A stretch of 64,000 nt of DNA from Platerodrilus igneus (lineage: Eukaryota; Arthropoda; Insecta; Coleoptera; Lycidae), in NCBI GenBank assembly GCA_036346225.1, contig JARFIW010001670.1:2542001-2606000 (forward strand), in the 5' to 3' direction. The translations under genes and the position numbers were made by a program. Below, in pieces: positions 4,640 to 64,000 of this stretch. The notes beneath the pieces are model-generated. The model made no database searches and was not told the origin of the DNA. It saw only the letters and a program-made list of their open reading frames with translations. Each line of letters opens with the position of its first letter. The stretch's first letter is position 1.

Positions 4640-4745
4640 ATGATGAGACGCAAATATCTTCCGACTTTGCTAGGGGTCTATTCCTAGGGTAGAACTTATG
4701 AGGATTGGTTGTGGTTCTTTTTACAAAACATTATTTGCTTACTAG
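4640..4745 (-). repeat. Uninterrupted copy of the 2161-3070 repeat
   Basis: Reverse complement matches 2175-2221 joined to 3011-3060. It serves as the pre-insertion reference for the solo-LTR-like insertion at 2222-3010. Confidence 0.55.
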
Positions 4746-24447: not shown

Positions 24448-27400
24448 GTACATATTACACACTATTTAATCAAGAACGCATGGTTACGTAAGATGTGTTA
24501 CTTTCCGGAATCGTTTGAATACATTTCACCAGTTCTGAAGTTGGTATTAAGATTCCGAATATTTTAACACCTCTTATATGTTCATTATTATTCTAAAACA
24601 TTTAACTACATTGTTTGTTCCGAACAACTTCCTAAGTCTTAAGTAGAATAAAGAAGCATGTTTGGCACATTCAAACCTGCTTAAGAAGATAAGTAAACAA
24701 AAAAAATAAATAATGAATACTCGTGCTTGGTAATATTACAATAAATCTTCTTTCTATTTATATAATCACTCACCGCTCATCCAACTGAATACAGATTATT
24801 AAGTATAATCGCCGAAACAACCGTTGCACGTCCTACTTGTAATCACGTCGCCAAACTAAATTTTTTGTATTTGTCGTTATTATAAAATTTGTTTTTTTAT
24901 TCATGATCATTTTGTTTTCGACTTAGTTAAGGTCGGTTTGGCGCAGCTCAAACTTCTTTTCTATTCTGTGCTAATCTAAAAAGTTCTACATACCCTTCAC
25001 AACCTAAGTTTTTAATAATTTGACTAATCTAGCTTGGTCTAGGTCTTCATATACTCTTCTATCTTTTTCCTATATACTTGGCTCTACATAGATATTAGCA
25101 CCCCGATGGTTGTTAAAGAATTCCAACATGTTTACATGATTCCCATTTATAAGGAAATGAAATATTATATGGCTATCCCCTCCAAAAAAGGAAAAGTGTT
25201 AAATTATATGTTATGATAAGGCTTAAGCAACGAATCGCTACCAAAATGCCAGACCGCTAACTAATTGTGAGTTATGTCATGGTGACATTTATTTAACTGA
25301 TTTTTATTTATTTATTTTTTTTGTTTTGTTATCGAACTTACTTAAGGTCGGTTTGACGCAGCTCTAAATTCTTTTCTATTCTGAGCTAGACTAAAAAGGT
25401 CTACATACCCTTCACAACCTAAATCTCTAATAATTTAACTAATATAGCTTTGTCTAGGTCTTGCTACTCTATTTTTATTTAGTAGTCTATAATCTAAGAC
25501 CTTACTAAATAGTCCCTCATGTCTTACCTGGTGCCCTATCATTCTGTCTCTCTTGACCTTTAATTGTTTCCACATACAGGCTTCCTCACCTATCCTTCTA
25601 TAAACTTCTTTATTTGTTACTCTATCTGCCCAACTAATCTTTAACATTCTCCTATAACACCAAGTTTCAAAAGCTTCTATCTTTTTCTTATCTGCCTCTT
25701 TAATTGTCCAAGTCTCACTACCGTATAATAGAACGCTCCATGCGTACCACTTTAAAAAACTTTTTCTATTATCTAAACTAATACTATTAGCAATTAGTAA
25801 GTTTTTCTTTTTGAAAAACATTTTTCTAGCTTGAGCTATTCTAGGTACTATATCCCTTCTGCTACGTCCGTCCTTTGTAATTATACTAACTAAATAGCAA
25901 AATTCATCTACCTCCTTTAACTCGGTATTACCTATTTTTAATTTTGGTTTAGAACTAGGCTGTAACTCACTTGTCATTATCTTTGATTTTCCTGAGTTAC
26001 TTTTCATACTATAGTTACTCAGTAGTACGTTATTGGAGTAATCAGACCCTCATTTGCTCCAGAATCCCTCATTTGCTCCTTCATCTGGACCAAATTTACA
26101 TGTAAAAACCCACTATCAAGTCTTATTTTTTAGGAATCTCCTCCTTGTGGAGATGAATCTCCTCCTTGTGGACCTCCTTGTGGGAGTTTTACCCCAACCG
26201 TCCCTAACCTAAAAATCGATAACCTAACCCCTAAAATTTTTGAGATACTTCTCGGTGCTTATTGACACCGCACCCACGAGATAAACCTATCTTGTTTGGT
26301 ATAAATTAATATTAGATTTTTCTCAGCTACCCGAAGCTTTAGGAATTTTTTAGATAGCATCATCTCCCAGAGAGCTACTCTAATTTTAAGATTTCTTACC
26401 TGTAGCGACTTTTAAGCGTTCTTATAAATTTTTTTATACATGAGATACATTCAATTAGTCTAGAATTTTATGCAGAATCCGAATCTGCAAACAGATTTAA
26501 AATAGGACCACGCCCTGCAAAGTTATACCCCTTTAAAGTCTGGAACCTCTAAATTCCGCTCTTTGCTTTATAAGCAAAACTAACAAATAGTTTTCTTCGT
26601 CTAACCAATGCATCTTTTGAGATAAACCTATCTTGTTTGGTATCAATTAATATTAGAATTTTCTCAGCTACCCGAATTTCTAGGATTTTTTTAGATAGCT
26701 CCATTCCCCAGGGGGCTACCCGAATTTTAAGATTTTTTTTTATCAATGTCGATTTCTAGTCACCTCCCTTTTTCAATATCTACAATCCTTTAACCAAACA
26801 CGTAGCAGTATTAACATAAATTAAGCATGCAAAATTTTAATAATTTATTTTATCTAATTTACAGTTTAATAAACTTATAGAATGCAATTTTACAAAGTAT
26901 AACATTATTTCCTGTGTTTAGTCGAATCCAAGTAGTTTAACCTGTAACAAAAAAAGATTAATGTGTTGTTTAAAAAAAGAGGAAACATGTTTTCGGTCAA
27001 TAAGACATATTATCGTTAACCTAACAATATGAGAATAATGTAAATACATTCCAATGTAATGTGTTTTAAATACGTAAGTGGGAAGGTCGACTTTTACGTA
27101 ATCATCGCGTGGTTAATAATTAAGAAAGCTGTATATAATTTCTTCTCCAAACAAATGCGGTTATTACAATAGGAAAGTACGCTAAATGCAAGTCAATTAA
27201 CAGCAATTTAATATTGCTTACTGACCTACCTTAATTAGGTTGCTGTGCTATTAGGAATGATGTACTTTTGTTGTCCTCGCCCGACAAACTGATTTTATTA
27301 ATTGGGTATAAAGTTGGTGTTTACATGGTTTCGTTTAAGACCTCGTACATATTTTCCGGATTACTAGAAGACGTTATAACCATACTTTTTGTGTTAAAGG

Positions 27401-30400
27401 ATTTCACATCGGTAGTCTCTTCCCCCATTTTGGTGTAAACGCCGTAGAGTTCGCAATCGACTTTTATTGCTGTATGTTGTATTCTTTTTTTATTAAGTAA
27501 TCGAATAAATCATCCCTTCTGCTTCCAAAGAAACTCGAACACTCCATCGCCCACACTGACATTCTTTATGCGATAGCTAACCATACGGATGTTAAACGCT
27601 GTGCTAACCATTTCTACACCATCGTCGTTAGTAGCGGTAACTGATGCATTTTTATGTTTGTTGCTCCGTAGATGACCAGGGTATGCAGACTTTAACACCT
27701 CCATGTCGCACACTTTACACATAATTCGTGGTTGTTTCGTACAAGACCCTTTAACAGCTGGCGGAGCTGAACGTTTACTGCTTAATGACATACCGTGCTG
27801 TTTTTCCTTGTGTCGCTGTAAGCTATTCTTGTAAAAGCGATACTGCAAGACCCCACAGTTTAAGTTCTTTGCTGCCAACGGATGTATAAGCTTAACCGGG
27901 GACGATGTTACACCACGACATTTGTTCTGGTGCCGTTTGAGAGCATCCCTCCTGGTAAAGTAGACGTGACAGGGCTCGCATTTAAAAACGTTTACTACAA
28001 AACAAAATCCGCACTATAAGACTTGACTTGTAATCGAACCAACTTATAACTAAAAAGCTTACTCTAGCGTACTTGATTTATGTACCCTATAGAATGCATA
28101 CCAAAGGTTTCCGAAGACGGCCGAACGATGTTGAGGATTCAGCGGGGAACTAAATGACGTCATAATCCTTGCTGCTCGTCCAATACATTTAGCGCCAATG
28201 CATGCACCTGGTTCGCATCGTCGATGGTGCGAATGCCGTTAGTAGAAACATCGGAAACGTCTTCCATGTTATACGGATTGCGTGCATATTAAAAATCCGA
28301 AAGGGTGGTAGCACACGCACACAAATTGTGTGCAAGTCGTGCTGTAGAAGATGCAGTGCTACTATAACCAAAAACTTAATAAAAACACTTTAAACACTTT
28401 ACTAAGGGAACACCGAACTTGTTGTCTACAGGATACTTACTAATAAAGCAATTTAATTTTAAATAACTTGTACGTCATACTTTAGGAAATGGTGGGCTTG
28501 AATATTTTCCAAATGAATCACCAAGCGAAAGTATATGCATAGCAGTATTAAAATTAACCATTAATTTCCCATTTTTACGACCGTGGTTAATTATAGATTA
28601 AAATTTAATTTGTGCACGTTCGAGCTTCTCGTAAACTAACATATTTTATAGCAACAATGCGCTGTATAATACATGCATACTCCTTCGCCGCGCTACTGCT
28701 ATTCTTGTAATTGCTAGAAAAAGTCACTCTCCTTTTTACTGTTAGGACCGATGCAAAGCACCATTTTTTTATACATTCTATAGCACATCGCGCACTTTTT
28801 GTCGGATAATTAAATTTTGCTTCTGTAGGCTTTTACACTTTCGCATAGCGGTCGGCCGCACGTAATGATTTCTAGAACCCGTAAGTACTCGATATCGTCC
28901 AAATAGAGAATTAGATGCTCGATGTTTGTCAACTTCCGATTCCTTCGTAAAAGGTAGAAAAAAACTCGGTCAATCATTCATTATACTTCGACCCGCTCCT
29001 GTTCTGATAATTTACAAACATTTTTCAAACGACAATGGGCTGAGAATTTTTAAACCTCCGAGGGATCTTTAAGTCGTAATCAATTACACATCCGAGCTAC
29101 GCGTAAACTAACAATGCGCTGTATAATACATGCATACCCCTTCTCTGCGCTACTGCTATTCTTGTAGTTGCTTGAAAAAGTCAGTCGCCCTTTTTACTGC
29201 TAGGGTCGCTAAAAGGCACCATTCCATACATTCAATAGCACATCGCGCACTTTTTTTGTCGGATAATTAAATTTTGCTTATGTAGGCTTTTACACTTTCT
29301 CTTATTTAAACATCTAATACGATTGATTAACCACTTTCGATTATTCTAACGGAGACCACCATACATCCCGCCGCATCGTTCTTTTTGAATCCAACGATCC
29401 TATGGGCTTCCACGCACTAACACCTGACGTATCTTTCCTACTATTTGTTAAACAAAAACTACCGGTATCGCCATTGTGAACGTAAACAGATGTTTGTGGA
29501 TGTGTACGAGAGTATGTAACCATATACATTAACCAGTCTAAGCTATTTTATTTAATCCAAAAACTATTATTTTTCTAAACCACAATTAATAATCGCCTTT
29601 ATAGGTTTAACATTTCGATCATTTCCCAATGACTGGTGCTACGTACATGGAAACTTTAATTTCTTATTGGAGAGAATTCTTATTCTCCCGCGCACTGCTG
29701 CGTAGTTGCATGCCTACCCTTTTTGGAGGTATATGCTCGTTATAGGTTGTAAGACCCTCGGTTTTACTTAACTACAATTCGCGAGACCCCTTTAATCTTT
29801 TTAATCGTATCTTTCTCGCTTACAATACAGTCGGACTCAGCCTTACTTCCAACAAATTCTAATACTGGACCCCCATTAAATTCGTCTTTAAATTTCCCTA
29901 CAACTTTTTTGTTGACAAGTGTTATATTGTATTTATTATACGCGGGGTAGTCACTCTTTTAAGATAAATATATTTTGCTAGGTATCAACTAACATTAAAT
30001 TTTTCTAGGGACCCCAAATCTGTAAATAGATTTTAAATAGGACCACCCCTTACAAAGTTATACCTTTTAAAGACTAATTTTTGCTCATCTTTATTTAACA
30101 CCATCTTTAGAACCTTTTTTTTGCTACGCAAGACATATGCCTTAACCAACCATCTCCCGAGAAATCTAAAACCGCCGTGTCCCGCGAATACCGCGTGGAG
30201 ATAACACGTATACTCTGTCAACCAGGATAGAAGCAGGAAGGATTTGGAAGTTGGGCGAGGAGCTTAAAAATTATGGAATCTTAAAACTAATATACACAAT
30301 AGATTTACAAAATCTATACAAATATAAACAACTATCTTATATCTTTATGCCTCCATGCGTAGATTGCTGTACTATTAGGAATGATGTGCCTTTTGTTATC

Positions 30401-33400
30401 TTCCCTCGATAAACTAATTTTATTAATAAGCTGCGTATACAAATCGTATTTTTTACTCCGGATACATACGCAGGCAAGTACTCGATACCATCCAAATAAA
30501 GAATTGGATGCTTGGTGACTGTTAACATCCGCTTCTCTCGTGTACGCCCAGACACATCCCAGCCCATGAGCACCCCTGCGCATGCACACTCCAGCTCATG
30601 CGCACCCCTGCGCGTACGCACCCCTGCCCATGCACGCTGCCCATGAGCACCCCTCTCTGTGCGACTGCTATTTCGGGGTAATGTCACAGCCTTTTATAAA
30701 TAAAGAACAATGAATATAACATTGTTCTTTATTTATAAAGGGTGTGACATTACCCGAAATAGCAGTCGCACAGAGATGCTCATGGCAGCGTGCATGCAGG
30801 TGCTCATGGGCTGGGATGTGTCTGGGCGTACACGAGGGAAGCGGATGTTAACAGTCACCAAGCATCCAATTCTTTATTTGGATGGTATCGAGTACTTGCC
30901 TGCGTATGTATCCGGAGTAAAAATACGATTTGTATACGCAGCTTATTAATAAAATTAGTTTATCGAGGAAGATAACAAAAGGCACATCATTCTAATAGTA
31001 CAGCAATCTACGCATGGAGGCATAAAGATATAAGATAGTTGTTTATATTTGTATAGATTTTGTAAATCTATTGTGTATATTAGTTTTAAAATTCCATAAT
31101 TTTTAAGCTCCTCGCCCACCTTCCAAATCCTTCCTGCTTCTATCCTGGTTGACAGAGTATATGTGTTATCTCCACGCGGTATTCGCGGGACACGGCGGTT
31201 TTAGATTTCTCGGGAGATGGTTGGTTAAGGCATATGTCTTGCGTAGCGAAAAAAAGGTTCTAAAGATGGTGTTAAATAAAGATGAGCAAAAATTAGTCTT
31301 TAAAAGGTATAATTTTGTAAGGGGTGGTCCTATTTAAAATCTATTTACAGATTTGGGGTCCCTAGAAAAATTTAATGTTAGTTGATACCTAGCAAAATAT
31401 ATTTATCTTAAAAGAGTGACTATCCCGCGTATAATAAATACAATATAACACTTGTCAACAAAAAAGTTGTAGGGAAATTTAAAGACGAATTTAATGGGGG
31501 TCCAGTATTAGAATTTGTTGGTAGTAGGGCTGAGTCCGACTGTATTGTAAGCCAGAAAGATACGATTAAAAAGATTAAAGGGGTCTCGCGAATTGTAGTT
31601 AAGTAAAACCGAGGGTCTTACAACCTATAACGAGCATATACCTTCAAAAGGGGTAGGCATGCAACTACGCAGCAGTGCGCGGGAGAATAAGAATTCTCTC
31701 CAATAAGAAATTAAAGTTTCCATGTACGTAGCACCAGTCATTGGGAAATGATCGAAACGTTAAACCTATAAAGGCGATTATTAATTGTGGTTTAGAAAAA
31801 TAATAGTTTTTGGATTAAATAAAATAGCTTAGACTGGTTAATGTATATGGTTACATACTCTCGTACACATCCACAAACATCTGTTTACGTCCACAATGGC
31901 GATACCGGTAGTTTTTGTTTAACAAATAGTAGGAAAGATACGTCAGGTGTTAGTGCGTGGAAGCCCATAGGATCGTTGGAATCAAAAAGCACGATGCGGC
32001 GGGATGTATGGTGGTCTCCGTTAGAATAATTGAAAGTGGTTAATCGATTGTATTAGATGTTTAAATATGCGAAAGTGTAAAAGCCTACATAAGCAAAATT
32101 TAATTATCCGACAAAAAAAGTGCGCGATGTGCTATAGAATGTATGGAATGGTGCCTTTTAGCGACCCTAGCAGTAAAAAGGGCGACTGACTTTTTCAAGC
32201 AACTACAAGAACAGCAGTAGCGCAGAGAAGGGGTATGCATGTATTATACAGCGCATTGTTAGTTTACGCGTAGCTCGGATGTGTAATTGATTACGACTTA
32301 AAGATCCCTCGGAGGTTTAAAATTCTCAGCCCATTGTCGTTTGAAAATGTTTGTAAATTATCAGAACAGGAGCGGGTCGAAGTATAATGGATGATTGACC
32401 GAGTTTTTCTACCTTTACGAAGGAATCGGAAGTTGACAAACATCGAGCATCTAATTCTATTTGGACGATATCGAGTACTTACGGGTTCTAGAAATCATTA
32501 CGTGCGGCCGACCGCTATGCGAAAGTGTAAAAGCCTACAGAAGCAAAATTTAATTATCCGACAAAAGTGCGCGATGTGCTATAGAAAGTATAAAAATGGT
32601 GCTTTGCATCGGTCCTAACAGTAAAAGGAGAGTGACTTTTCTAGCAATTACAAGAATAGCAGTAGCGCGGCGAAGGAGTATGCATGTATTATACAGCGCA
32701 TTGTTGCTATAAAATATGTTAGTTTACGAGAAGCTCGAACGTGCACAAATTAAATTTTAATCTATAATTAACCACGGTCGTAAAAATGGGAAATTAATGG
32801 TTAATTTTAATACTGCTAAGCATATACTTTCGCTTGGTGATTCATTTGGAAAATATTCAAGCCCACCATTTTCTAAAGTATGACGTACAAGTTATTTAAA
32901 ATTAAATTGCTTTATTAGTAAGTATCCTGTAGTCAACAAGTTCGGTGTTCCCTTAGTAAAGTGTTTAAAGTGTTTTTATTAAGTTTTTGGTTATAGTAGC
33001 ACTGCATCTTCTACAGCACGACTTGCACACAATTTGTGTGCGTGTGCTACCACCCTTTTGGATTTTTAATATGCACGCAATCCGTATAGCATGGAAGACG
33101 TTTCCGATGTTTCTACTAACGGCATTCGCACCATCGACGATGCGAACCAGGTGCATGCATTGGCGCTAAATGTATTGGACGAGCAGCAAGGATTATGACG
33201 TCATTTAGTTCCCCGCTGAATCCTCAACATCGTTCGGCCGTCTTCGGAAACCTTTGGTATGCATTCTATAGGGTACATAAATCAGGTACGCTAGAGTAAG
33301 CTTTTTAGTTATAAGTTGGTTCGATTACAAGTCAAGTCTTATAGTGCGGATTTTGTTTTGTAGTAAACGTTTTTAAATGCGAGCTCTGTCACGTCTACTT

Positions 33401-36400
33401 TACCAGGAGGGATGCTCTCAAACGGCACCAGAACAAATGTCGTGGTGTAACATCGTCCCCGGTTAAGCTTATACATCCGTTGGCAGCAAAGTACTTAAAC
33501 TGTGGGGTCTTGCAGTATCGCTTTTACAAGAATAGCTTACAGCGACACAAGGAAAAACAGCACGGTATGTCATTAAGCAGTAAACGTTCAGCTCCGCCAG
33601 CTGTTAAAGGGTCTTGTACGAAACAACCACGAATTATGTGTAAAGTGTGCGACATGGAGGTGTTAAAGTCTGCATACCCTGGTCATCTACGGAGCCACAA
33701 ACATAAAAATGCATCAGTTACCGCTACTAACGACGATGGTGTAGAAATGGTTAGCACAGCGTTTAACATCCGTATGGTTAGCTATCGCATAAAGAATGTC
33801 AGTGTGGGCGATGGAGCGTTCGAGTTTCTTTGGAAGCAGAAGGAACGATTTATTCGATTACTTAATAAAAAAAGAATACAACATACAGCAATAAAAATCG
33901 ATTGCGAACTCTACGGCGTTTACACCAAAAAGGGGGAAGAGACTACCGATGTGAAATCCTTTAACACAAAAAGTATGGTTATAACGTCTTCTAGTAATCC
34001 GGAAAATATGTACGAGGTCTTAAACGAAACCATGTAAACACCAACTTTATACCCAATTAATAAAATCAGTTTGTCGGGCGAGGACAACAAAAAGTACATC
34101 ATTCCTAATAGCACAGCAACCTAATTAAGGTAGGTCAGTAAGCAATATTAAATTGCTGTTAATTGACTTGCATTTAGCGTACTTTCCAATTGTTATAACC
34201 GCATTTGTTTGGAGAAGAAATTATATACAGCTTTCTTAATTATTAACCACGCGATGATTACGTAAAAGTCGACCTTCCCATTTACGTATTTAAAACACAT
34301 TACATTGGAATGTATTTACATTATTCTCATATTGTTAGGTTAACGATAATATGTCTTATTGACCGAAAACATGTTTCTTCTCTTTTTAAACAACACATTA
34401 ATCTTTTTTTGTTACAGGTTAAACTACTTGGATTCGACTAAACACAGTAAATAATGTTATACTTTGTAAAATTGCATTCTATAAGTTTATTAAACTGTAA
34501 ATTGGATCAAATAAATTATTAAAATTTTGCATGCTTAATTTATGTTAATACTGCTACGTGTTTGGTTAAAGGATTGTAGATATTAAAAAAGGGAGGTGAT
34601 TAGAAATCGACATTGATAAAAAAAATCTTAAAATTCGGGTAGCTCCCTAGGAAATGGAGCTATCTAAAAAATTCCTAGAAATTCGGGTAGCTGAGAAAAT
34701 TCTAATATTAATTGATACCAAACAAGATAGGTTTATCTCAAAAGATGCATTGGTTAGACGAAGAAAACTATTTGTTAGTTTTGCTTATAAAGCAAAGACC
34801 GGAATTTAGAGGTTCCGGACTTTAAAGGGGTATAACTTTGCAGGGCGTGGTCCTATTTTAAATCTGTTTGCAGATTTGGATTCTGCATAAAATTCTAGAC
34901 TAATTTAAGGTATAAAAAAATTTATAAGAACGCTCAAAAGTCGCTACAGGTAAGAAATCTTAAAATTAGGGTAGCTCTCTGGGGGATGATACTATCTAAA
35001 AAATTCCTAAAGATTCGGGTAGCTGAGAAAAATCTAATATTAATTGATACCAAACAAGATAGGTTTATCTCGTGGGTGCGGTGTCAATAGGCACCGAGAA
35101 GTATCTCAAAAATTTTAGGGGTTAGGTTATCGATTAGGTTAGGGATGGTTGGGGTAAAACTTCCACAAGGAGGTCCACAAAGAGGAGATTCATCTCCACA
35201 AGGAGGAGATTCCTAAAAAATAAGACTTGATAGTGGGTTTTTACATGTAAATTTGGTCCAGATGAAGGAGCAAATGAGGGATTCTGGAGCAAATGAGGGT
35301 TTGATTACTCCAATAATGTACTACTTTACTCTGTAGTATATCATCTAAAATATTTAAAAACTCTCCTAACTCTTTTCTAGACTCTGCTATGATGGTTATA
35401 TCATCTTCAAGAAGTAACATGCCTATTTTCTGTCTTGGTACACTAATACCTATCTCTTTTCTCTCTCTAAGTTTAAAGCTACCTTAATATAAATATTAAA
35501 AATAAGGGAGATAGTATGTAGTCCTGTCTAACACCATTTCTAATCTTAGCTTCCTTTTCTATTTCATCAAATCTAATTACTATGTTTTGGTTTTTATATA
35601 GACTGTAAATAATTTTTCTATCCCTATGAGAGATTCCTATTTTTCGCGAAACCCTGAAGATAACAATCCAATAAACCCTATCAAATGCTTTTTCTAAATC
35701 TACAAACGCGAAATGAGTCTTTTTATTTTTTTGTAACCTTTTTTCGATAATTACCCTAATCATTAGTATCGGTTCTCTATTCCCTCTGTCTTTACGAAAA
35801 CCGTATTGATCTTCGCCTAAATAATTCTCAGTCAAAGCTTCTACTCTATTTTTAATTATTATTGTTAGTATTTTGGAAGCGTGGGAAGTTAAACTAACCG
35901 TTTTAAAATTCTCACACCTATCAGCTCCTGACTTTTTGAGATTGGGATAATAATATTTTTTTCGAAATCTATTGGGACCTCACCTGTATCACATATTATT
36001 TTACTAGTTCATATAATTTGTCTAAAGTTTTCTGACTTGCATATTTTATTAATTCTGCGGGTATATCGTCTATCCCCGGCGCTTTATTTAGTTTTAGATC
36101 CCTAAAAGCTCTATCAAATTCCTCTCTTAATATTGAGAACCCTATTTCTACATCATTTTCTTGGTCATTCTCTAACTCATCCATATCGTCTCCCTTATAT
36201 AAATCTTCTAAATATCTTTTCCATCTATCTGCTACCTCAACTTTATTTGTTAGAACCTCATTATTCTCATCTTTAATACCATTATATGTTTTCTTATCTT
36301 CCCCGAAAAGCTGCATTGTAAGCCCTGTCTGTCTTACCTACTCTTAAATCATGTTGTATTCTCTTACAATTCTCCTCCATCCATTTATTTCTAGCTTTTT

Positions 36401-42400: not shown

Positions 42401-45400
42401 TCGACTGCCTACAGCACGGGTTACCACCGTATTGCACGCTCAAATGATTACATTTTAAACTGCTAGCCGATAATAAATTTTTTGACGTTCTCAAGTTAAC
42501 CGCTTGCGGATAATTAATTCGTTTATCCGTCGAATGTAATTATTGTCATTTAATTCTTCCCCTTTTTATGTTTAGAAAGGAGCTTTGCCATGCTACAATC
42601 TTCCTGTTAGGTTTATGAAATGAATTCCGGAAAAACACTGTGTTGCCATGTGATTTACTTAGCTTAAATTTTGTGTTTCGTTTTGTTCACCAATGTAAAT
42701 AAATACATTGTATTGAAATGATTAAATTAAATCTGCAATCTGATATCCGTAAATTTCTTCTACTCAACGTCTGGGTTTTTACATTGTATTGCACTATGTA
42801 TTGAAACCACGTAGCACTGAATTTAATTTAGTTAAATAAAATTTGTAAAAGAGTTCTTCTATATTTGAGATGCATTTTAATGAATACACTGTTATTTATT
42901 TCATAATTCTAATGATGTCTTAAAATGGCATGATTCCAATATGATAATTTATAAAAAGAAGTATTTTGTTTACACTTTTGTGGTTTAAAATAATCTATGC
43001 ACCTGAGTTCCGTTCTAATGTGTATTTGACGAAGATAAAACAATGCTTTTATGGTTTTTAAGTTTATGATCGTAAAACAGCTTATTGAAAGTCTTGCTTA
43101 CTGAACACTACCGTTTATGAAATTAGAATATACATGGTATTTTTTAAATTTTCTTTGGGAATTAAACCACTCATAGTTTTTGAAATCATCTTTATTTACG
43201 TTTTGATCCATGACCTAGGATCGTTGTCAAAATAATAAACACTTCAAGTTTGACATTTATGACATAAATTGAACGTGACTTTAATTTATTGATGTTCGAA
43301 ATATTTGGTTTGAGTACACTAGGCAAAAAGAATGATTGCTTTCAATTTTGTTGCGGCCTCGGACCGACTTTTTCAGGTAGCCAATACGCTTAACGTGAAA
43401 TCAGCTAATTAATTTTTATTGGCGAATTTCAAATAAATTCAATAACTTGAAGATTGGAAAACATTTTTTAACATGTTTTTATTTATACAATTGAGAGGAT
43501 GATTATTAAAGAAGTGTGCGTTTACGTTACCGTAAGGCTTAAGCAGTCGTTTTTTATATTAATTTTGAAGGGGAAAATCATTATGATTTAGGCTACCTTT
43601 TTGGTAGATTTTAACATGGTTCTGAGACGACCTTATGGCGGGTTTACACTTGTCAGATACCAATGTTGTTCTATGAAGATTGTATATGGATCTGAGGCGA
43701 CCCTATGGCGGGTTTACACTTGTCAGATTTGAAATTTGAAACTCACCAATAAAAATTGATCAGATGATTTCACGTTAAGCGTATTGGCTACCTGAAAAAG
43801 TCGGTCCCAGGCCGCAATACAAATTGAAAGCAATCATTCTTTTAAACTTTAAAAATTTTTTGCCTAGTGTACTCAAACCAAATATTTCGAACATCAATAA
43901 ATCAAAGTCACCTTCAATTTATGTCATAAATGTCAAACTTGAAATTTTTATTATTTTGACAACGATCCTAGTCATGGATCGAACCGTAAATAAAGATGAT
44001 TTTAAAAACTATGAGTGGTTTAATTACCAAAGAAAATTAAGAAAAATGCTAAACAAACCACAACAAACATACAGAGAGTATGTACATGGTATATAAATAT
44101 AAAGCTTGACCTTTTGAGATTAATTTTCCTCTTTTTGCATTAGGTTTATATTTACCGTAACGCTAAGGGGTTACAGAAGTATAATTATCAAACAATTATA
44201 TAATAAAAATTAAACGAATAATATCTGTAAAATGTGAATTTCTATAATATATAAGCTATATGTATGGTTCTGTTATTAGCCATCATCGTGGAACACGAAG
44301 CAGAAAAATTCAAAACTCTATCTAACCAAATTGCGCAACGAATACCGTATGGAACTTTATAATAAAGTATTCGCCAATAGCATGTTGAGGGCTCTGTTGC
44401 TGGTTACAAACAGAAAATCAATTAAGCATTGTTTGTGTTTGTGAGCAATTTGCAAAGAAAGAAAAACCAATGACAGGTTTTGATGCATTTGCAGCTTGTT
44501 GGATTGGCATACACTTTCTGCACAAAAAGCTATCAACAGTCTTGAAATCACGAACGTATATACGAAGGGAGAAAATTTACAACGCCATCTACAAAGAATG
44601 GCAACGTGTCCCTCGACCTTATATCATTCTTTATACTATAAAGAATAAGTGAATAGACAACACCTTCTTTAAATATTTGCGGTATTCACCTGAAATCTTA
44701 CACGAGCTAAGACTACTGTTTCTGTTTAGTAAACATTACACGCGCCCATTACATTCTGTTACTACTATAGAGTTACAAATAATTATAATTAGAAAGCTAT
44801 CGAAAATTAATAACTACACATTCTGTGTAAGAGCAAATAAATCCTTTTGGGTAAATTTAATTATTATTATTATTCACCTCAGGTTCACTACTATAGTAAT
44901 TAGAAATTAAATCAGTAGATTAAATGGAAGTTATAACTATAGGTATAGGAGGCCACACTCATTTGCTATTGCACACCTCATTAACCATTCTAAAACCACC
45001 CATTATCATTACCATTATTTCGCAGTGCAAGGAAAGTTACATGCTATTACATCAAAGATAATTTATTTAATGTTTAAATAATAACCACTCTTTTTCTGTT
45101 TTAGACATGCGAGGTCTTATTGTCCGATCCAGAAACAAAAGATTTTTTGTTCTCAGCACACAAATTCGACTTACTTGTTTTAGACGGTGCATATCCAGAA
45201 TGCGCTCTTGGATTTACACATCACTTCAAAGCACCATTTATCTATTTAAATACCGTAGGTTTCTACACAGGAAGTTTGTCTGTGGCTGGGAACCCGGTAC
45301 CGTTTTCTGTTACTCCTTTTTTTGGACGTCCGTTTACAGATAATATGAATATCATACAAAGAACCGTGAACACACTGTGGCACCTTGCAGCGTACGCGGT

Positions 45401-54886: not shown

Positions 54887-54959
54887 AGTAGACCATTTAG
54901 TGACGAACTGCCGCCACATTTCCTCCAGAATCCCACATTTCCTCACACATCTGGACCAA

Positions 54960-56215
54960 AAAGTTTTCTTCGACTAACCATTTTTCATCTTTCGAGATAA
55001 ATATATCTTAATTTTTCATCTTTCGAGATAAATGAGCATCCTCATTTCCACACACGAGATAAACCTATTTTTAAGATTTTTTTACCGCTAACATTCTGAA
55101 CCAAAAAGTTTTCTTCGACTAGCCATTTTTTATCTTTCGAGCTAAACCTATCATGTTTGGTATCAATTAATATTAGAATTTTCTCAGCTACCCAAATCTC
55201 TAGGAATTTTTTAGATAGCATCATCCCCCAGGGAGCTACCCTAATTTTAAGATTTTTTACCTGTAGCGACTTTTGAGCGTTCTTATAATTTTTTTATACA
55301 TGCGATACATCTTGTCAGTCTAAAATTTTACGCAGAATCCAAATCTGCAAACAGATTTAATATAGGACCACGCCCTGCAAAGTTACACATATACCCTCTG
55401 CGAGATAAATCTTTTTCCACATTTCCACACACGAGATAAACCTACCTTGTTTGGTATCAATTAATATTAGAATTTTCTCAGCTACCCAAATCTCTAGGAA
55501 TTTTTTAGATAGCATCATCCCCCAGGGAGCTACCCTAATTTTAAGATTTTTTACCTATAGCGACTTTTGAGCGTTCTTATAAATTTTTTATACATGCGAT
55601 ACATCTTGTTAGTCTAAAATTTTATGTAGAATCCAAATCTGTAAACAGATTTGAAATCGGACCACGCCCTGCAAAGTTATACCCCTTTAAAGTCCTGATC
55701 TTCTAATTTTGCTATTTGCTCTATAAGCAAACCTAACAAATAGTTTTCTTTGTCTAGCCATTGCATCTTTCGAGATAAACCTATCTTGTTTGGTATCAAT
55801 TAATATTAGAATTTTCTCAGCTACCCAAATTTCTAGGAATTTTTTAGATTGCATCACCCCCAAGGGAGCTACCCCAATTTTAAGATTTTTTACCTGTAGC
55901 GACTTTTGAGCGTTCTTATAATTTTTTTATACATGCGATACATCTTGTTAGTCTAAAATTTTACGCAGAATCTAAATCTGCAAACAGATTTAATATAGGA
56001 CCACGCCCTGCAAAGTTACACATATACCCTCTGCGAGATAAATCTTTTTCCACATTTCCACACACGAGATAAACCTACCTTGTTTGGTATCAATTAATAT
56101 TAGATTTTCTCAGCTACCCAAATCTCTTTAAATTTTTCAGATTGCATCATCCCTAAGGGAGCTACCCCAATTTTAAGATTTTGTACCAAGATCAATTTCT
56201 AATCACCTCTCCTTT
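54960..56215. repeat. Left terminal repeat array (about 3.5-4 units)
   Basis: Units starting at the TTTGGTATCAATTAATATTA landmark recur near 55155, 55448, 55788 and 56085. Spacings alternate at about 297, 335 and 296 bp because two linkers alternate: a short one with CACATTTCCACACACGAGAT and a longer one with AACAAATAGTTTTCTT. The array is therefore a two-unit higher-order repeat. Confidence 0.82.
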
Positions 56216-56727
56216 TTAATATCTACAATCCTTTAACCAAACACGTAGCAGTATTAACATAAATTAAGCATGCGAAAATTTATTTTATTCGATTTACAGT
56301 TTAATAAACTAATTACAATTTTTACAAAGTATAACATTATTTCCTGTGCGTAGCCGAAAGTTTAACCTGTAAAAAAAAAGATTAATGTGTTGTTTAAATA
56401 GACCTGTAATAAAAAGAGATTAATGTAAAAAAAAAGGAGACATGTTTTCGGTTAATAAGACATATTATCGTTAATCTAACAATATGTTTTACCGTCCAGC
56501 GACACCACGTGGAGGTAAACACATTCCAATGTAATGGGTTTTAAATATGAGAATGGGGAGGTCAACTTTCACGTAATCATCGCGTGGTTAATAATTAAGA
56601 AAGCTGTATATAATTTTATTTTAAACGTGTATATCTTCTCCAAACAAATGCGGTTATTATAATAGGAAAGTACGCTAAATACAAGTCAATTAACAGCAAT
56701 TAAATATTGCTTACTGACCTACCTTAA

Positions 56728-57303
56728 TTAGGTTGCTGTGCTATTAGGAATGATGTTTAAGACTTCGTACGTATTTTCCGGATTATATGTTGTATTCTTT
56801 TTATTAAGTAATCGAATAAATCGTTCCTTCTGCTTCCAAAGAAACTCGGACACTCCATTGTCGACGCTGGCGTTATTTATGCGATAGCTAGCCATGCAGT
56901 TGTTAAACGCTGTGCTAATCATTTCTACGCCATCTTCGTTAGTAGCGGTAACTGATGCATTTTATGTTTGTTGCTCCTTAAGTGTGCGGCGTACGTAGTT
57001 TTTCCATTTCGAAATCGCATACTGTACACATAATTCGTGGTTGTTTCGTACAAGACCCTTTAACAGCTGGTGGCGTTGAACGTTTACTGCTTAATGACAT
57101 ACCGTGCTGTTTTTCCTTGTGTCGCTGTGAGCTATTCTCGTAAAAGCGATACCGCAAGACCCAGAGTTTAAGTACTTTGCTGCGGAAGGCTTAACCCTGG
57201 GCGATGTTACACTACGACATTTGTTCTGGTGCCGTTTGAGAGCATTTTTCCAGGTATAGGAAGCACCGCAAGGGTTGCACTTATAAACGTTTGCAGGTAC
57301 CAT
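56728..57303 (-). pseudogene. Mini-PolB zinc-finger gene, third copy
   Basis: Here the start codon is kept: ATG at 57303 gives MVPANVYKCNPCG with an intact CxxC-HxxxxC finger, followed by RHQNKC. Frameshifts then disrupt the middle. 56922-56728 reads through CMASYRI, FLWKQKERFIRLL, NPENTYEVLN and directly into the C-terminal IIPNSTAT and a stop. The deletion joining N- and C-terminal parts is larger than in the palindrome but reaches the same C-terminus. Confidence 0.65.
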
Positions 57304-58632
57304 TTTAGTACAAAACAAAACCCGCACTATAGCACTTTGGTTAAACTTGTAATCGAACTAACTAAAAGCTTACTCGAGCGTACCTGATTTATGTTCCTTA
57401 TAGAATGCATACCGAAGGTTTCCGAAGACGACCGAACGATGTTGAGGATTCGGCGGGGAACTAAATGATGTCATATTCCTTGCTGCTCGTCCAATACATT
57501 TAGCGCTAATGCATGCACCTGGTTCGCTTCGTCGATGGTGCGAATGCCGTTAGTAGAAACACCGGAAAACGTCTTCCATGTTATACGGATCGCGTGCATA
57601 TTAAAAATCCAAAGGGTGGTAGCACACGCACACAAGTTGTGTGCAAGTCGTGCTGTAGAAGATGCAATGCTACTATAACCAAAAACACTTTAAACCATTA
57701 CTAAGAAAATACCAACTTGTTGTCTACAGGATACTTACAACAATTTAATTTTAAATAACTTCTACGTCATATTTTAGGAAATGGGGGGCTTGAATATTTT
57801 TCCAAATGAATCACCAAGCGAAAGTATATGCTTAACGGTATTAGAATTACCCATTAATTTCCTATTTTTACGACCGTGGTTAATTATAGATTGAAATTTA
57901 ATTTGTGCACGTTCGAGCTTCTCGTAAACTAACATATTTTAGAGCAACAATGCGCTGTATAATACATGCATACCCCTTCGCCGCGCTACTGCTATTCTTG
58001 TAATTGCTAGAAAAGTCACTCTCCTTTTTACTGTTAGGAGCGATGCAAAGCACCATTTTTATACTTTCTATAGCACATCGCACACTTTTTCGTCTGATAA
58101 TTAAATTTTGCTTCTGTAGGCTTTTACACTTTCGCATAGCGGTCGGCCGCACGTATTGATTTCTAGAACCGGTAAGTACTCGATATCCTCCAAATAGAGA
58201 ATTAGATGCTCGATGTCTGTCAACTTCCAATTCCCTCGTAAAAGGTAGAAAAACTCGGTCAATCATCCATTAAACTTCGACCCGCTACCGTTTTGATAAT
58301 TTCCAAACATTTTTCGAACGACAATGGGCTGAGAATTTTTAAACCTCCGAGGGATCTTTAAGTCGTGATCAATTACACATCCGAGCTACGCGTAAACTAA
58401 CATATTTTGCAGCAACTGTATAATACATGCATACCCCTTCTCTGCGCTACTGCTATTCTTGTAGTTGCTTGGAAAAGTCAGTCGCCCTTTTTACTGCTAG
58501 GGTCGCTAAAAAGCACCATTCCATACTTTATTTATAAGTGTAGCACATCGCACACTTTTTTTGTCGGTTAATTAAATTTTTGTTTATGTAGGCCTTTACA
58601 CTTTCGCTTATTTAAACATCTAATACGACCGA

Positions 58633-58836
58633 TTAACCACTTTCGATTATTCTAACGGGGAACCACCATACATCCCACCGCATCGTTCTTTTTGAATCCA
58701 ACGATCCTATAGGCTTCCGCACACTAACACCTAACGTATCTTTCCTACTAGTTGTTAAACAAAAACTACCGGTATCGCCATTGTGGATATAAGCAGATGT
58801 TTGTGGATGTGTACGAGAATATGTAACCATATACAT
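58633..58836 (-). other. About 62-67-codon frame shared by all three copies
   Basis: Starts MYMVTYSRTHPQTSAYIHNG. Same frame at 29341-29529 (-) and 31841-32029 (+). No family recognised; the frame is open in all three copies with several amino-acid changes. Confidence 0.35.
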
Positions 58837-59079
58837 TAATTAGTCTAAGCTATTTTATTTAGTCCAAGAAAATTATTATTTTTCTAATCCACAACTAATA
58901 ATCGCCTTTATAGGTTTAACATTTCTACCATTTCCCAATGACTGGTGCTACGTACATGGAAACTTTAATTTCTTATTAGAGAGAATTCTTATTATCCCAC
59001 GCACTGCTGCGTAGTTGCATGCCCACCCCTTTTGGGAATATATGCTCGTTATAGGTTGTAGCACCCGCGGTTTTACTTA

Positions 59080-59250
59080 ACTACACTTCGTGAGACCCCT
59101 TTAATCTTTTTAATCGAATCTTTCTCGCTTACAATACACTCGGACTTAGCCCTACTACCAACAAATTCTAATACTAGACCCCCATTAAATTGGTCTTTAA
59201 ATTTCCCTACAAGTTTTTATCGACAAGTGTTATATTGTATTTATTATACG
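59080..59250 (-). pseudogene. PolB palm-end fragment, third copy
   Basis: Reads GKFKDQFNGG, LEFVGSRAKSE and KKIKGVSRSVVK, then stop. RAKSE is closer to the polymerase consensus than the RAESD of the palindrome arm. Confidence 0.5.
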
Positions 59251-59637
59251 CGGGGTAGTCACTCTTTAAGATAAATATATTTTGCTAGGTATCAACTAAT
59301 ATTAAATTTTCTAGGGACCCCAAATCTGTAAATAGATTTTAAATAGCTCCACCCATACAAAGTTATGCCTTCTAAAGACTAATTTTGCCCATCTTTATTT
59401 AACTCCATCTTTAAAACCCTTTTTGCTACGCAAGACATATGCTTTAGCCACCCATCTCCCGAGAAATCTAAAACCGATGTATCCTCGAACACCACGTGGA
59501 GGTAACACGTATACTCTGTCAACCAGGATAGAAGCAGGAAAGATTTGGAAGGTGGGCGAAGAACTTAAAAATTATGGAATTTAAAAACTAATATATACAA
59601 TAGATTTACAAAATCTATACAAATATAAACAACTATC

Positions 59638-59990
59638 TTATATCTTTACGTCCCCATGCGTAGATTGTTGTACTATTAGGGTGACGTAACGCTTGTCATC
59701 TTCCCTCGATAAACTAATTTTATTAATAAGCTGCGTATGCAAATCGTATTCTTTTACTCCGGATACATACGCAGACAAGTACTCGATACCATCCAAATAA
59801 AGAATTGGATGCTTGGTGACTGTTAACATCTGCCTCCCTCGTGTACGCCTAAGCACGCCTGTGCCCATGCGCGCCCCCTGCGCGTGCACACCCCTGCCCA
59901 TGCGCGCCCCATGCGCGTACGCACCCCTGCCCATGCTCGCTGCCCATGAGCACCCCTTTCTGTGCGACTGCTATTTCGTGGTAACGTCAC
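59638..59990 (-). pseudogene. PolB C-terminal tail fragment with VNTR head, third copy
   Basis: Reads GAxAxGARMGRG-type repeats, KHPILYLDGIEYLSAYVSGV, YDLHTQLINKISLSREDDKRY. Here the frame stays open from the repeat-coded head through the tail, unlike either palindrome arm. A TATA-like TTATTTATAAAAGG sits upstream. Confidence 0.5.
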
Positions 59991-60117
59991 AGCCTTTTAT
60001 AAATAAAGAACAATGTTATATACTATTATAAAATGTTTATTCTGACATTATACATAACAAATTTAAAAATATTTAATACCAAGCATGGATCCATTTAAAC
60101 TTAATTTTAATACAAAG

Positions 60118-60663
60118 TTATACACAGAAGACAGTCCTTTCTTTATGTTTGTTTGCAGTGGTTTTAATTTTATCTAATTTTATTCGCAGCTTAAAATTTA
60201 AATCGACACCCAAGTCTTCTATCTCCTTTTCTAACCAATAGTTTGATACATAAAGACCGTCTAGGTTTTCGAATTGTAAAATGTACCGAAGTTTGCCTCT
60301 ATATTTAAAGTCTTTGATTCCACCGACAACCAGATCCATTCCTTCGTGTAATTCTTGCAGCTTGTGACAATCTTTTAATCGCAGCTTTCCCACTATATCC
60401 TGTATACGTATCTTGTTAGCTTGATCGACTTCTTCTTGTCGGTATTGGAGGAAATCCTTTTTCTCCCACACACCGTTGTGTAGATGCATATCCACCACTT
60501 TTGGGAATATATGGTTGTTATAGGTCGTAAGACCCTCGGTTTTAAATGATCCGAAAGGTTCTTTACTAGGTAAATATACAATGTTTAGCAGAACCCCTTT
60601 GCGTGTGGTGTACGCCAAGGTTACGAAACCCGCATTCCTTAGTTCGTCTTTGTTATCTGCCAT
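60118..60663 (-). CDS. Intact 181-aa element protein, possible DNA-binding protein
   Basis: The only intact gene of the element: ATG at 60663, stop at 60118, starting MADNKDELRNAGFVTLAYTT. It is lysine-rich and mostly beta-strand-like (DLVVGGIKDFKYRGKLRYIL) with a basic C-terminus (KIKTTANKHKERT). It lies 28 bp downstream of the larger broken gene, a compact virus-like arrangement. A fragment of a paralogue (KTEGLTTYN) is found in each palindrome arm and at about 59050. I do not recognise the family. The strand-rich basic character would suit a single-strand-DNA-binding or accessory replication protein, which is inference. Confidence 0.6.
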   Translation of the reverse strand: MADNKDELRNAGFVTLAYTTRKGVLLNIVYLPSKEPFGSFKTEGLTTYNNHIFPKVVDMHLHNGVWEKKDFLQYRQEEVDQANKIRIQDIVGKLRLKDCHKLQELHEGMDLVVGGIKDFKYRGKLRYILQFENLDGLYVSNYWLEKEIEDLGVDLNFKLRIKLDKIKTTANKHKERTVFCV

Positions 60664-60691
60664 TTTGATAAATACGTTTTAGAATAACCTT

Positions 60692-62501
60692 TTAAAAGTA
60701 TACGGATTTAGTACCATCCTTTTCTACAAGAAGACCTACATAACTAAAAGAGTCTTTCTTACTAACCGCAAATGCATACAGCTTGTACAACCCGGATGTA
60801 TCTAAGTCAGTCCATCGACACATAAAATAATCTTTTAATTCTTCCTCATTTTCTCTAATAAGATGTTCTTTGTCTAACACATCTTTGTATTGTTCGCGTA
60901 TCGTCGCAGTGTTTTCCATGTAGTCCAATTTTCGCCTTTTTGCATCCATTTCCTCTAATTCCAGTTGTCTTTTCCTTCCACTTACTGCGTATGGCATACA
61001 TAATGGGGTAATTTCCTTTAGCGTAAACGGATAGAGTTTACTACCAATATTTGCGCGTTGTCGTACAACCTCTGGGCGAATGTTAGGTGTATTTATCAAT
61101 CCCAATTCCGAAATGACTATTTCTTTTGGAATTGTAGAATATGGTGTTGCAGATTGTGTAAAATATGTACTACCTGCTTTAATGTAGCACTTGTGTAAGA
61201 TTTTTATTTTATCTTGGCTGTCTTCCTCCTCTACTATCTCCAAATAATTTACGGGTAAATAGTTAAAACTAAAAGCCGAAAGCACATACTTTATCAATGT
61301 TTCCCTTTCTTTTGGTTTTTCGGACAACTTAATTTGTAAGCCCGTCAATTTCTTTGTATTACCATTACCCCAATACACGTACTGTAGCAGGTTATTATAC
61401 ACTAAACAGCAGCTATTTTGTAGCTTGTCCGATAGCTTACTCTACATTTTGGCAAGTGGTACCGAGTACATTGGCGCCTTTAGGAAGTATAACTTACTAT
61501 CTTCCAATAACGTTAAACAGTCTTTTAAGGGATTATACACCCGTTCCGCACTGACATAGCTTCCAATTGCACAATTGTATATTGTCGCTTCCAATCGCGT
61601 AATACCATGTTCTTTAGCCAAAGTAGACGCAAATGTTTCCTTAAACGTACATCTGGACAAGGTAAAAATCTAGTATATGATTTCCAAGTTGTTTATTAAC
61701 ACCAGGACTTGTTATCTGACACACAAATTTGTTGTATATCTTAATTCTTGCATTGGTTGTTAGCCATGTTAAACAATCAATTCCTACAGTTTTATCGTTG
61801 TCAACTATAATATTACACTTTTCTTCGTATTAGCCCTTATAGCAAAAGTTATGGTTTGTAGTTAAATAATTACACATCTCCATCTTGCTAAATATACCCG
61901 CAAAATCTTGGGTTACATCCATGTCAAAAAGATAGAAATAATCTTTTTCGAGTTCGTCTAATATATCTGGTAGTTCCTCCAATAAAGTTTCCAACTTAAC
62001 ATCTGCTAGTTCCACTTTGTATGGAACACATATAGGATTTTGGAATTTTTTATTAATGCATTCGAGGTCTTCTTTTCCGATAATTTCTTTTACTCTCTAA
62101 CCCATCTTGTTAGTGCTTTCCAGAGAAAACGGGAGCTTAGCTTTAACACCATGCCTAGCGGAAACAAATCGGTCAAACTTTCTTCGTAGATAGCTGTTAA
62201 ATGCACCACAAATTTCTTTTTTTAGGATAAACATCCTTTTGCTTGCAGATGTTTGTTCGGCGTCAGAAAGGTCGCAAATTTTAACCAACATTATATTGTC
62301 ACAAAATGGTTCTGTAATTGGTGTGTGTAGTCCACCAGTCAGCATCTGTTCGCCTTCGACATAACAAATATTACCAATATCTGTTACCAGATTATTGTTG
62401 CACATATTTTCTGTCAACAGCCATAATCCAAATCGCTCATTTGTCGGTTTCACTTTATTCCCAAGAAGTTGAGAAACGTTAATCACCTTTGAGACGCTCA
62501 T
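60692..62501 (-). pseudogene. Broken ~600-codon element gene (replication-protein candidate)
   Basis: One long gene, starting at ATG 62501 (MSVSKVINVSQLLGNK), reads through five segments to a stop at 60692. It is broken by TAG at 62097-62099, TAA at 61830-61832, a one-base shift in a T-run near 61668, and TAG at 61442-61444. Distinct motifs are DVTQDFAGIF, a [14 protein letters not shown] segment, KIYNKFV, GNHILDF, HGITRLEATIYN, and a basic helix KRRKLDY near the C-terminus. I recall similar motif series in uncharacterised replication-type proteins of eukaryotic mobile DNA, but cannot name a family. Few lesions in 1.8 kb imply recent inactivation. Confidence 0.6.
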
Positions 62502-62649
62502 GTTTACCGTTCTAGCTACTATCGAATACTAAATTGAATACGAAAAAATTGTTCTCTTATGTATTCTACAGAGTCGGGACGTATATTACCGAAGATAGTC
62601 GAATATGTTGTTATCCGACCTAAGCCGACAGGGATGCGCATCGACATAT

Positions 62650-62880
62650 ATCCGGATATATGTAGGATGTAAAGTTAGGGTGAAATTACCCCATAGGGTG
62701 AAATTGCCCCATAGAGTGAAATTGCCCCATGACCACATGACCATATGACCACATGACCACATGACCATATGACCACATGACCATATGACCACATGACCAT
62801 ATGACCTAATTGCTTTTTAATGAGTTTTCTCATTAAAAACCCATTAGCACTAATTGCTTTTTAATGAGTTTTTCCATTAT
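62650..62880. repeat. Three sets of short tandem iterons
   Basis: In order: three copies of a 17-18-bp unit (AGGGTGAAATTGCCCCAT) at about 62678-62731; about eight 10-bp units alternating ATGACCACAT/ATGACCATAT at 62729-62806; and two ~45-bp units (TAATTGCTTTTTAATGAG) at about 62806-62885, each an imperfect palindrome. They lie between the ~600-codon gene's 5' end and the right terminal repeat, where a promoter or origin would be. Confidence 0.75.
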
Positions 62881-62936
62881 AAACCAAGTGTGGACCTAGG
62901 TTAGATAAAAGGAAAAAATAATAGGTTAAGTCGCAT

Positions 62937-64000
62937 TTTAGACTAACAAGATGTATCGCATGTATAAAAAATTTATAAGAACGCTCAAAAGTCGCTATAG
63001 GTAAAAAATCTTAAAATTAGGGTAGCTCCCTGGGGGATGATGCTATCTAAAAAATTCCTAGAGATTTGGGTAGCTGAGAAAATTCTAATATTAATTGATA
63101 CCAAACAAGGTAGGTTTATCTCGTGTGTGGAAATGTGGAAAAAGATTTATCTCGCAGAGGGTATATGTGTAACTTTGCAGGGCGTGGTCCTATATTAAAT
63201 CTGTTTGCAGATTTGGATTCTGCGTAAAATTTTAGACTAACAAGATGTATCGCATGTATAAAAAAATTATAAGAACGCTCAAAAGTCGCTACAGGTAAAA
63301 AATCTTAAAATTGGGGTAGCTCCCTTGGGGGTGATGCAATCTAAAAAATTCCTAGAAATTTGGGTAGCTGAGAAAATTCTAATATTAATTGATACCAAAC
63401 AAGATAGGTTTATCTCGAAAGATGCAATGGCTAGACGAAGAAAACTATTTGTTAGGTTTGCTTATAGAGCAAATAGCAAAATTAGAAGATCAGGACTTTA
63501 AAGGGTATAACTTTGCAGGGCGTGGTCCGATTTCAAATCTGTTTACAGATTTGGATTCTACATAAAATTTTAGACTAACAAGATGTATCGCATGTATAAA
63601 AAATTTATAAGAACGCTCAAAAGTCGCTATAGGTAAAAAATCTTAAAATTAGGGTAGCTCCTGGGGATGATGCTATCTAAAAAATTCCTAGAGATTTGGG
63701 TAGCTGAGAAAATTCTAATATTAATTGATACCAAACAAGGTAGGTTTATCTCGTGTGTGGAAATGTGGAAAAAGATTTATCTCGCAGAGGGTATATGTGT
63801 AACTTTGCAGGGCGTGGTCCTATATTAAATCTGTTTGCAGATTTGGATTCTGCGTAAAATTTTAGACTGACAAGATGTATCGCATGTATAAAAATTATAA
63901 GAACGCTCAAAAGTCGCTACAGGTAAAAATCTTAAAATTAGGGTAGCTCCTGGGGATGATGCTATCTAAAAATTCCTAGAGATTTGGGTAGCTGAGAAAA
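62937..64000. repeat. Right terminal repeat array (continues past window)
   Basis: Reverse complement of the left array, with the same alternation of linkers. The landmark recurs near 63095, 63390 and 63725, spacings about 297 and 335 bp. The inner edge differs from the left array's inner edge, so the two arrays do not hold the same number of units. Confidence 0.82.

What the first reader, a model, noticed from the sequence alone, without database searches (positions are those of the whole stretch)
26021..35325. A 9.3-kb element that is one continuous palindrome, with a 6-bp target duplication
The whole insertion is an inverted repeat with ~4.6-kb arms, begins AG and ends CT, and is flanked by TTACTC. 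It disrupts an RTE LINE, and excising it with one TTACTC leaves the LINE in frame. It therefore moved as a palindrome or became one as it integrated. The arms carry remnants of a zinc-finger type-B DNA polymerase. Six-bp duplications and AG...CT ends are features I recall for Maverick/Polinton elements. An integrated, fully palindromic member is not something I know to be described. Unequal arm decay (a stop in the left mini-PolB, a shorter VNTR in the right arm) argues against a simple assembly artefact.
Basis: partly seen in the sequence, partly recalled or inferred. Interest (0 to 1): 0.9.

Follow-up and report, generated by a model that had tools for sequence, protein, structure and literature searches.

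The report
Fully palindromic fold-back transposon
A 9.3-kb piece of jumping DNA here is almost perfectly its own mirror image, and relatives in the same genome are mirrored to different degrees, which points to copying errors that fold such elements back on themselves.

Summary
26021-35325 is a 9,305-bp insertion made of two inverted arms (76 mismatches in 4,605 aligned positions) meeting at a 7-nt loop, with AGTAGT...ACTACT ends and a 6-bp TTACTC duplication. It interrupts a LINE whose frame is continuous without it.

It belongs to an abundant family in this genome with very long terminal inverted repeats. Of eleven elements with both ends in hand, nine have exact 6-bp duplications. At the fold point, 16 other arm ends run on without folding; an unknown gene (P1), absent from this copy, begins about 0.1 kb beyond. 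At exact match the fold occurs once in the 2.71-Gb assembly.

Relatives have loops of about 78 bp, 0.57 kb, and 0.9 kb to several kb. In two of them gene sequence is duplicated inverted, which deletion from the single-gene forms cannot produce. In 10 of 11 elements in a tree the two arms are sisters.

Best reading: a fold-back (snapback) derivative, one half copied into its mirror, then integrated. A symmetric internal deletion, or conversion after insertion, is not excluded. Insertion hallmarks are Polinton-like, but the element keeps only a weak polymerase remnant. TIR-only and extended-TIR copies are known from Galileo (longest TIR about 1.26 kb): a new variant of a known kind.

The parts
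26015..26020 (.). left copy of target duplication TTACTC
26021..35325 (.). palindromic element, AGTAGT...ACTACT, 9,305 bp
26021..30712 (+). left arm (family arm positions 1-4692)
   Evidence: 98.35% of 4,605 aligned positions identical to the right arm
30706..30726 (.). fold-back centre AACAATG-AATATAA-CATTGTT, found once in the 2.71-Gb assembly at exact match
30720..35325 (-). right arm, inverted copy of the left arm
35326..35331 (.). right copy of target duplication TTACTC
27510..28013 (-). zinc-finger ORF, left arm, 167 aa (shorter than in the right arm)
   Evidence: zf-met E 0.0019, below Pfam cut-off
33345..34037 (+). same zinc-finger ORF, right arm, 230 aa
   Evidence: zf-C2H2 E 0.0018, below Pfam cut-off
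29776..29955 (-). PolB-like C-terminal remnant, left arm (weak)
   Evidence: tblastn, 22/65 identical, E 3e-5 over the window
31415..31594 (+). PolB-like C-terminal remnant, right arm (weak)
   Evidence: tblastn, 22/65 identical, E 3e-5 over the window
35479..35979 (-). reverse transcriptase ORF of the interrupted LINE
   Evidence: RVT_1 E 1.1e-15; the next frame on this strand runs across the insertion point once the insert is left out
25435..26014 (-). downstream half of the interrupted LINE frame
54887..64000 (.). second, non-palindromic family copy (continues to 64292 outside the window), TSD AATATT, TIR about 1.3 kb, carries disrupted P1

Best explanation
A TIR-only, fold-back derivative of an abundant long-TIR DNA element. 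Ordinary members have an arm of about 4.7 kb, then the P1 gene, then an inverted arm of variable length. In this copy DNA synthesis came up to about 0.1 kb short of the P1 stop codon (arm position about 4692-4702), turned back on its own strand at a self-complementary TATATA, and copied the arm out to the terminus. That left out P1 and made a linear palindrome with two good ends. It was then inserted with a 6-bp stagger, presumably by an integrase acting in trans. Shown: the palindrome, the ends, the duplication, the fold point relative to unfolded copies, and related elements with other loop sizes. Inferred: that the event was a template switch during element replication before integration, and that the enzyme was Polinton-type.
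For: (1) 16 other arm ends in the fetched loci and the second window copy run past the fold point; 11 read CAATG-TTATATACTAT, so TATATA lies at the turn. The P1 stop codon is about 103 bp further in two copies measured. (2) The fold pattern occurs once in 2.71 Gb, control 0 (exact match only); of 40 scored of 2,721 candidates only this locus has a match across the fold. (3) C30 (13,361 bp, TSD AATATG) has about 6.4-kb arms with P1 codons about 191-513 in both, and a 0.57-kb loop. C171 (about 14.5 kb) has arms of about 7 kb with PolB matches in both and a 78-bp loop, with AGGA shared between the two sides of the turn. Both carry gene sequence duplicated in inverted orientation, which deletion from the single-gene forms cannot give. 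(4) Neighbouring PolB hits within 15 kb, split hits of one gene left out: 11 convergent pairs, 1 same-strand, 1 divergent (typed, where 124 of 1,117 candidates were scored). (5) Left and right arms are sisters in 10 of 11 elements with both arms in a tree of 24 pieces of about 860 bp; ours 87/85 support, exception C1048. (6) Exact 6-bp duplications in 9 of 11 elements with both ends, 5 of 6 bases in C1546, none in C171.
Against: C990 and C170 already have TIRs ending about 66 and 184 bp past the fold point, with 2.8 and 2.7 kb holding P1 between, so deletion between two symmetric TATATA words would give the same junction. The arms differ more in the outer 1.2 kb (31/1200) than inside (45/3405; Fisher p 0.005), which hints at later conversion. 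The change-point test (p 0.035) is not special, though: 2 of 5 control elements also fall under 0.05. The observed centre TTATATTC is not exactly the TTATATAAC that a clean TATATA turn predicts. C171 lacks a matching duplication. No palindromic siblings were found. Inverted gene copies could also descend from an ancestor whose TIRs were longer still.
Confidence: 0.5

Rival explanations
1. Symmetric internal deletion: a copy with about 4.76-kb TIRs lost its whole unique middle (P1) by end joining or slippage between the two TATATA words, which are direct repeats because the word is self-complementary.
For: C990 and C170 have the structure of such progenitors; other members lack parts of the middle, e.g. 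C1452 = arm up to 3053 plus inverted arm up to 4087; Galileo 2-TIR copies are called deletion derivatives (PMC3573991, passages).
Against: Needs two end points symmetric to within a few bases, while spacers in the other fetched copies of this family are 0.57 kb or more. Does not explain C30 and C171, where gene sequence is duplicated inverted, unless their ancestors had longer TIRs.
Confidence: 0.27
2. In-situ conversion: an ordinary copy with a short (about 1.2 kb) right TIR inserted, and a later double-strand break was repaired by copying the left arm onto the right side up to the break.
For: Outer 1.2 kb of the arms is about twice as diverged as the rest (31/1200 against 45/3405); the copies C433 and W2 have about 1.3-kb TIRs, and C433 is the best other match to this element's end (97% over 20-255); both palindromic folds tested are single-locus.
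Against: Control elements C1061 and C1452 also show clustered arm differences, so the step may be chance. Arms of most elements coalesce together whatever their TIR length, which homogenisation at transposition would explain without later repair.
Confidence: 0.18
3. Assembly artefact: a hairpin read or mis-join mirrored one arm.
For: Long palindromes are a known artefact class (general knowledge); no reads were available here.
Against: 76 substitutions and about 20 indels between arms, unique flanks on both sides in one LINE, matching TTACTC, 52-bp asymmetry near the centre.
Confidence: 0.03

Closest known systems
Galileo 2T and 2RT copies (P superfamily, Drosophila mojavensis; PMC3573991, passages read)
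   Same: Long TIRs with internal tandem repeats, highly variable TIR length, TIR-only copies, TIRs extended by inverted recruitment of internal sequence
   Different: Galileo TIRs reach about 1.26 kb and are bounded by 7-bp sequences; here arms are 4.6-7 kb, the TSD is 6 bp, ends are AGTAG...CTACT, no transposase of that kind was found, and this copy has a 7-nt centre
Polinton/Maverick elements (PMC6431247, PMC4046053, PMC2836005, passages read)
   Same: 6-bp TSD and AG...CT ends (this part of the definition is recalled); a PolB-bearing relative in the genome has the same ends and a 6-bp TSD
   Different: No integrase, ATPase, protease or capsid hit in the ORFs of this copy that were scanned; own PolB only a weak remnant; TIRs far longer than the several hundred bp recalled for Polintons
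AAV snapback subgenomes (PMC8235507, passages read)
   Same: One genome end duplicated as an inverted copy; symmetric forms and asymmetric forms with a loop both exist
   Different: Those are packaged parvoviral subgenomes; this is an integrated chromosomal copy
Drosophila Foldback (FB) elements (recalled)
   Same: Long inverted repeats with short tandem repeats, variable length
   Different: 9-bp TSD (recalled); different ends

Membership tests
Polinton/Maverick | 6-bp target site duplication (recalled definition) | tested here: met
   TTACTC; 9 of 11 elements with both ends exact
Polinton/Maverick | AG...CT termini (recalled definition) | tested here: met
   AGTAG...CTACT at both ends of 10 of 11 elements; C171 right end is CCTAC. 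Outside these, the C20 right end extrapolates to AATAG
[quoted passage not shown]
   only a 65-aa remnant per arm, 22/65 identical, without Pfam hit; a nested relative does encode DNA_pol_B_2
Polinton/Maverick | retroviral-type integrase, packaging ATPase, protease, capsid | tested here: not met
   no such Pfam hit in the 13 palindrome ORFs scanned (3, 10); 30 ORFs of 50 aa or more overlap the right arm, 11 of them scanned. Pox_A32-family ATPase hits exist elsewhere in the genome
Polinton/Maverick | same termini as intact Polintons of this genome | tested here: inconclusive
   ends of the ATPase-bearing loci L034 and L035 were not reached; the boundary search did not complete
Foldback/Galileo | long, internally repetitive, length-variable TIRs; TIR-only copies | tested here: met
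Foldback/Galileo | 7-bp (Galileo) or 9-bp (FB, recalled) duplication and P- or MULE-type transposase | tested here: not met
   6-bp duplications; no transposase domain in the P1 frame
Snapback (fold-back) replication product | one end duplicated inverted around a single turn point absent from other copies | tested here: met
Snapback (fold-back) replication product | exists as an extrachromosomal replicating molecule | not testable with these tools
   needs DNA from cells

The most novel reading that the evidence does not exclude
These are integrated snapback genomes of a Polinton-like, protein-primed linear replicon in a eukaryote: fold-back replication products, like the defective genomes of linear DNA viruses, are regularly made and then inserted by an integrase because both ends stay intact, leaving a chromosomal record of replication errors as palindromes with loops from 7 nt to several kb.
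Probability: 0.33. Interest if true: 0.75.

Novelty: new variant of a known kind. Interest (0 to 1): 0.52.

Why it matters
Large palindromes are usually unstable or assembly errors (general knowledge). Here one sits in an insertion with unique flanks, beside relatives with other loop sizes. The set makes it testable how very long TIRs arise: by template switching during element replication, by deletion, or by repair in the chromosome. It also bears on hairpin-driven chromosome rearrangement and on double-stranded RNA from mirrored genes.

Tried and rejected
Rejected: that the palindrome carries the zinc-finger PolB found in the C980 copy. That PolB sits in a separate nested element (C980:1055103-1064539) with its own ends and CTCGGT duplication, and its pieces have no hit in the window. 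Rejected as uninformative: the change-point test for a two-step history, since 2 of 5 controls also cluster. Led nowhere: identity of P1 (no significant hit in Pfam, PHROGs, NCBIfam or PDB; best rows Pentaxin E 0.085 and PRK07399 E 0.092); viral-contig searches with P1 and the zinc-finger ORF (no relative). A likeness of P1 motifs to Rep_trans-type initiators is recalled only and untested. Palindromic Polintons in print: searches (44 papers hold both words, 15 listed; no paper holds all four terms); titles and abstract starts of the listed papers were seen and none described one.

Corrections to my own notes: note 2 says 17 other copies pass the fold point; one search shows 16 arm ends, of which 14 stay in the shared sequence over the 160 bp printed, while C1275 (left) and C537 leave it after about 8 and 38 bp. 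A note placed a full PolB in both C171 arms; the calls show PolB matches along both arms with frame breaks. Notes give the nested element as 1055105-1064537; one search gives 1055103-1064539.
Full report
The observation. The window (C1598:2542001-2606000 of a 2.71-Gb, 1,723-contig genome) holds at 26021-35325 a 9,305-bp insertion whose arms align inverted at 97.85% over 4,555 columns. Cut at the centre, 4,529 of 4,605 aligned positions agree. The centre is AACAATG-AATATAA-CATTGTT. The ends are AGTAGT and ACTACT and TTACTC flanks both sides. The host is a LINE: an ORF at 35479-35979 is a reverse transcriptase, and the host flanks joined with a single TTACTC read as one open frame across the junction.

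The family. The arm finds many relatives: one search scored 40 of 13,206 candidates, one search scored 40 of 3,838 for the terminal 255 bp. In one search, 28 of the 40 rows form 14 inward-facing end pairs about 4.7 to 17.7 kb apart, this element included; 12 rows are single. I fetched parts of about twenty copies and relatives. Of eleven elements with both ends in hand, exact 6-bp duplications flank nine: this one, the second window copy W2 (AATATT), C980 host (TATCAA), C1014 (AGTAGT), C1061 (GATAGT), C1452 (TGCATA), C30 (AATATG), C433 (CATTAC) and the nested PolB element in C980 (CTCGGT). C1546 agrees in five of six bases and C171 has no match.

What lies at the fold. In 16 other arm ends the sequence runs on past arm position 4692; 11 read TTATATACTAT there, and 14 stay in the shared sequence over the 160 bp printed. 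About 103 bp on, in the two copies measured (L018, L036), is the stop codon of P1, a gene with open frames of up to 804 aa (84 scored of 24,734 candidates, 93-96% identical apart from the query's own locus). P1 has no recognised relative. Two copies, C990 and C170, have arms ending about 66 and 184 bp past the fold point with 2.8 and 2.7 kb holding P1 between them. The element in the window is therefore arm plus inverted arm, without P1.

The set of loop sizes. This element 7 nt; C171 78 bp; C30 0.57 kb; C1588 940 bp and C165 1,760 bp; C1452 about 1.0 kb, C1014 1.7 kb, C1061 2.9 kb, C1275 4.1 kb; W2 several kb with about 1.3-kb TIRs. C171, C165 and C1588 belong to the PolB relatives. Some spacers hold other insertions (for example reverse transcriptase in C1546), so spacer length is not always the original loop. 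In C30 the arms extend into P1. In C171 PolB matches lie in both arms, the two sides of the turn share AGGA, and the turn lies in an inverted PolB fragment that also sits at the inner end of the left TIR of the C980 nested element. Such inverted duplication of gene sequence needs copying; deletion from the single-gene forms would not give it. Genome-wide, neighbouring PolB hits within 15 kb are convergent in 11 of 13 pairs (split hits of one gene left out).

Arms and time. In a tree of 24 arm pieces, left and right arms of the same element are sisters in 10 of 11 cases, the exception being C1048; support for ours is 87/85, under the tool's starred level. Arms thus look regenerated or homogenised element by element. 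Of the 76 differences in this element, 22 look derived in the left arm, 35 in the right, 17 have both states in other copies and 2 lack data. The outer 1.2 kb is more diverged (31/1200 against 45/3405, Fisher p 0.005; change-point p 0.035), but two of five controls also show change-points under 0.05, so no two-step history is claimed.

Mechanism. Fold-back synthesis at a self-complementary word explains the symmetry, the location of the turn, and the gene-duplicating arms of relatives. AAV snapback genomes show symmetric and looped forms of the same kind (PMC8235507, passages). A symmetric deletion gives the same junction for this copy and cannot be excluded. Both fold junctions tested are single-locus at exact match, so nothing shows that palindromes multiply; they may be end products made in the last round before insertion, or in place.

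Kinship. Ends and duplication match what I recall for Polintons. A related PolB element shares the ends and the 6-bp duplication (DNA_pol_B_2 E 6e-12). Pox_A32-family ATPase hits, as Polintons carry (recalled), occur in the genome: 76 matches with E from 1.1e-5 to 1e-3, 150 of 945 candidates scored; the same model also rings in 2 of 14 control genomes. One such locus, L035, has the ATPase (E 1e-7) and a DNA_pol_B_2 ORF, so a helper is plausible. Each arm keeps a short PolB-like stretch. But the element itself lacks the defining genes, so I describe it as inserted like a Polinton, not as a Polinton. Its structural behaviour is closest to Galileo 2T and 2RT copies (PMC3573991, passages), at several times the arm length.

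Noticed in passing
window 54887-64000 (to 64292 outside): A second copy of the family lies 20 kb away with AATATT duplication, about 1.3-kb TIRs and a disrupted P1; it shows what the palindrome lacks.
   Followed up: yes
L036:3-2258; L018:1700-3238: P1, an unknown protein with open frames of up to 804 aa, very abundant in this genome and without a recognised relative; motif likeness to replication initiators is recalled only.
   Followed up: partly
L002/L003, C980:1055103-1064539: A PolB-bearing element with AGTAGG...CCTACT ends and CTCGGT duplication is nested in a family copy; its TIR runs into its own PolB gene.
   Followed up: yes
L024, L027-L030, C171:2794863-2809404: About 14.5-kb palindromic PolB element with 78-bp loop; its right end and flank do not match the left duplication.
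   Followed up: partly
L033:2508-3845 (C1253): A 1.35-kb palindrome of its own inside another family copy.
   Followed up: no
L006:5842-6317 (C1014:1778841-1779316): A short palindrome of about 475 bp inside the spacer of the C1014 copy, perhaps a second fold.
   Followed up: no
window 43139-43434 and 43734-44047: A separate inverted repeat, 88.6% identical over 315 columns, elsewhere in the window.
   Followed up: no
L034, L035 (C1229, C215): Loci with an open Pox_A32-type ATPase frame and DNA_pol_B_2 pieces, likely Polintons of another clade.
   Followed up: partly
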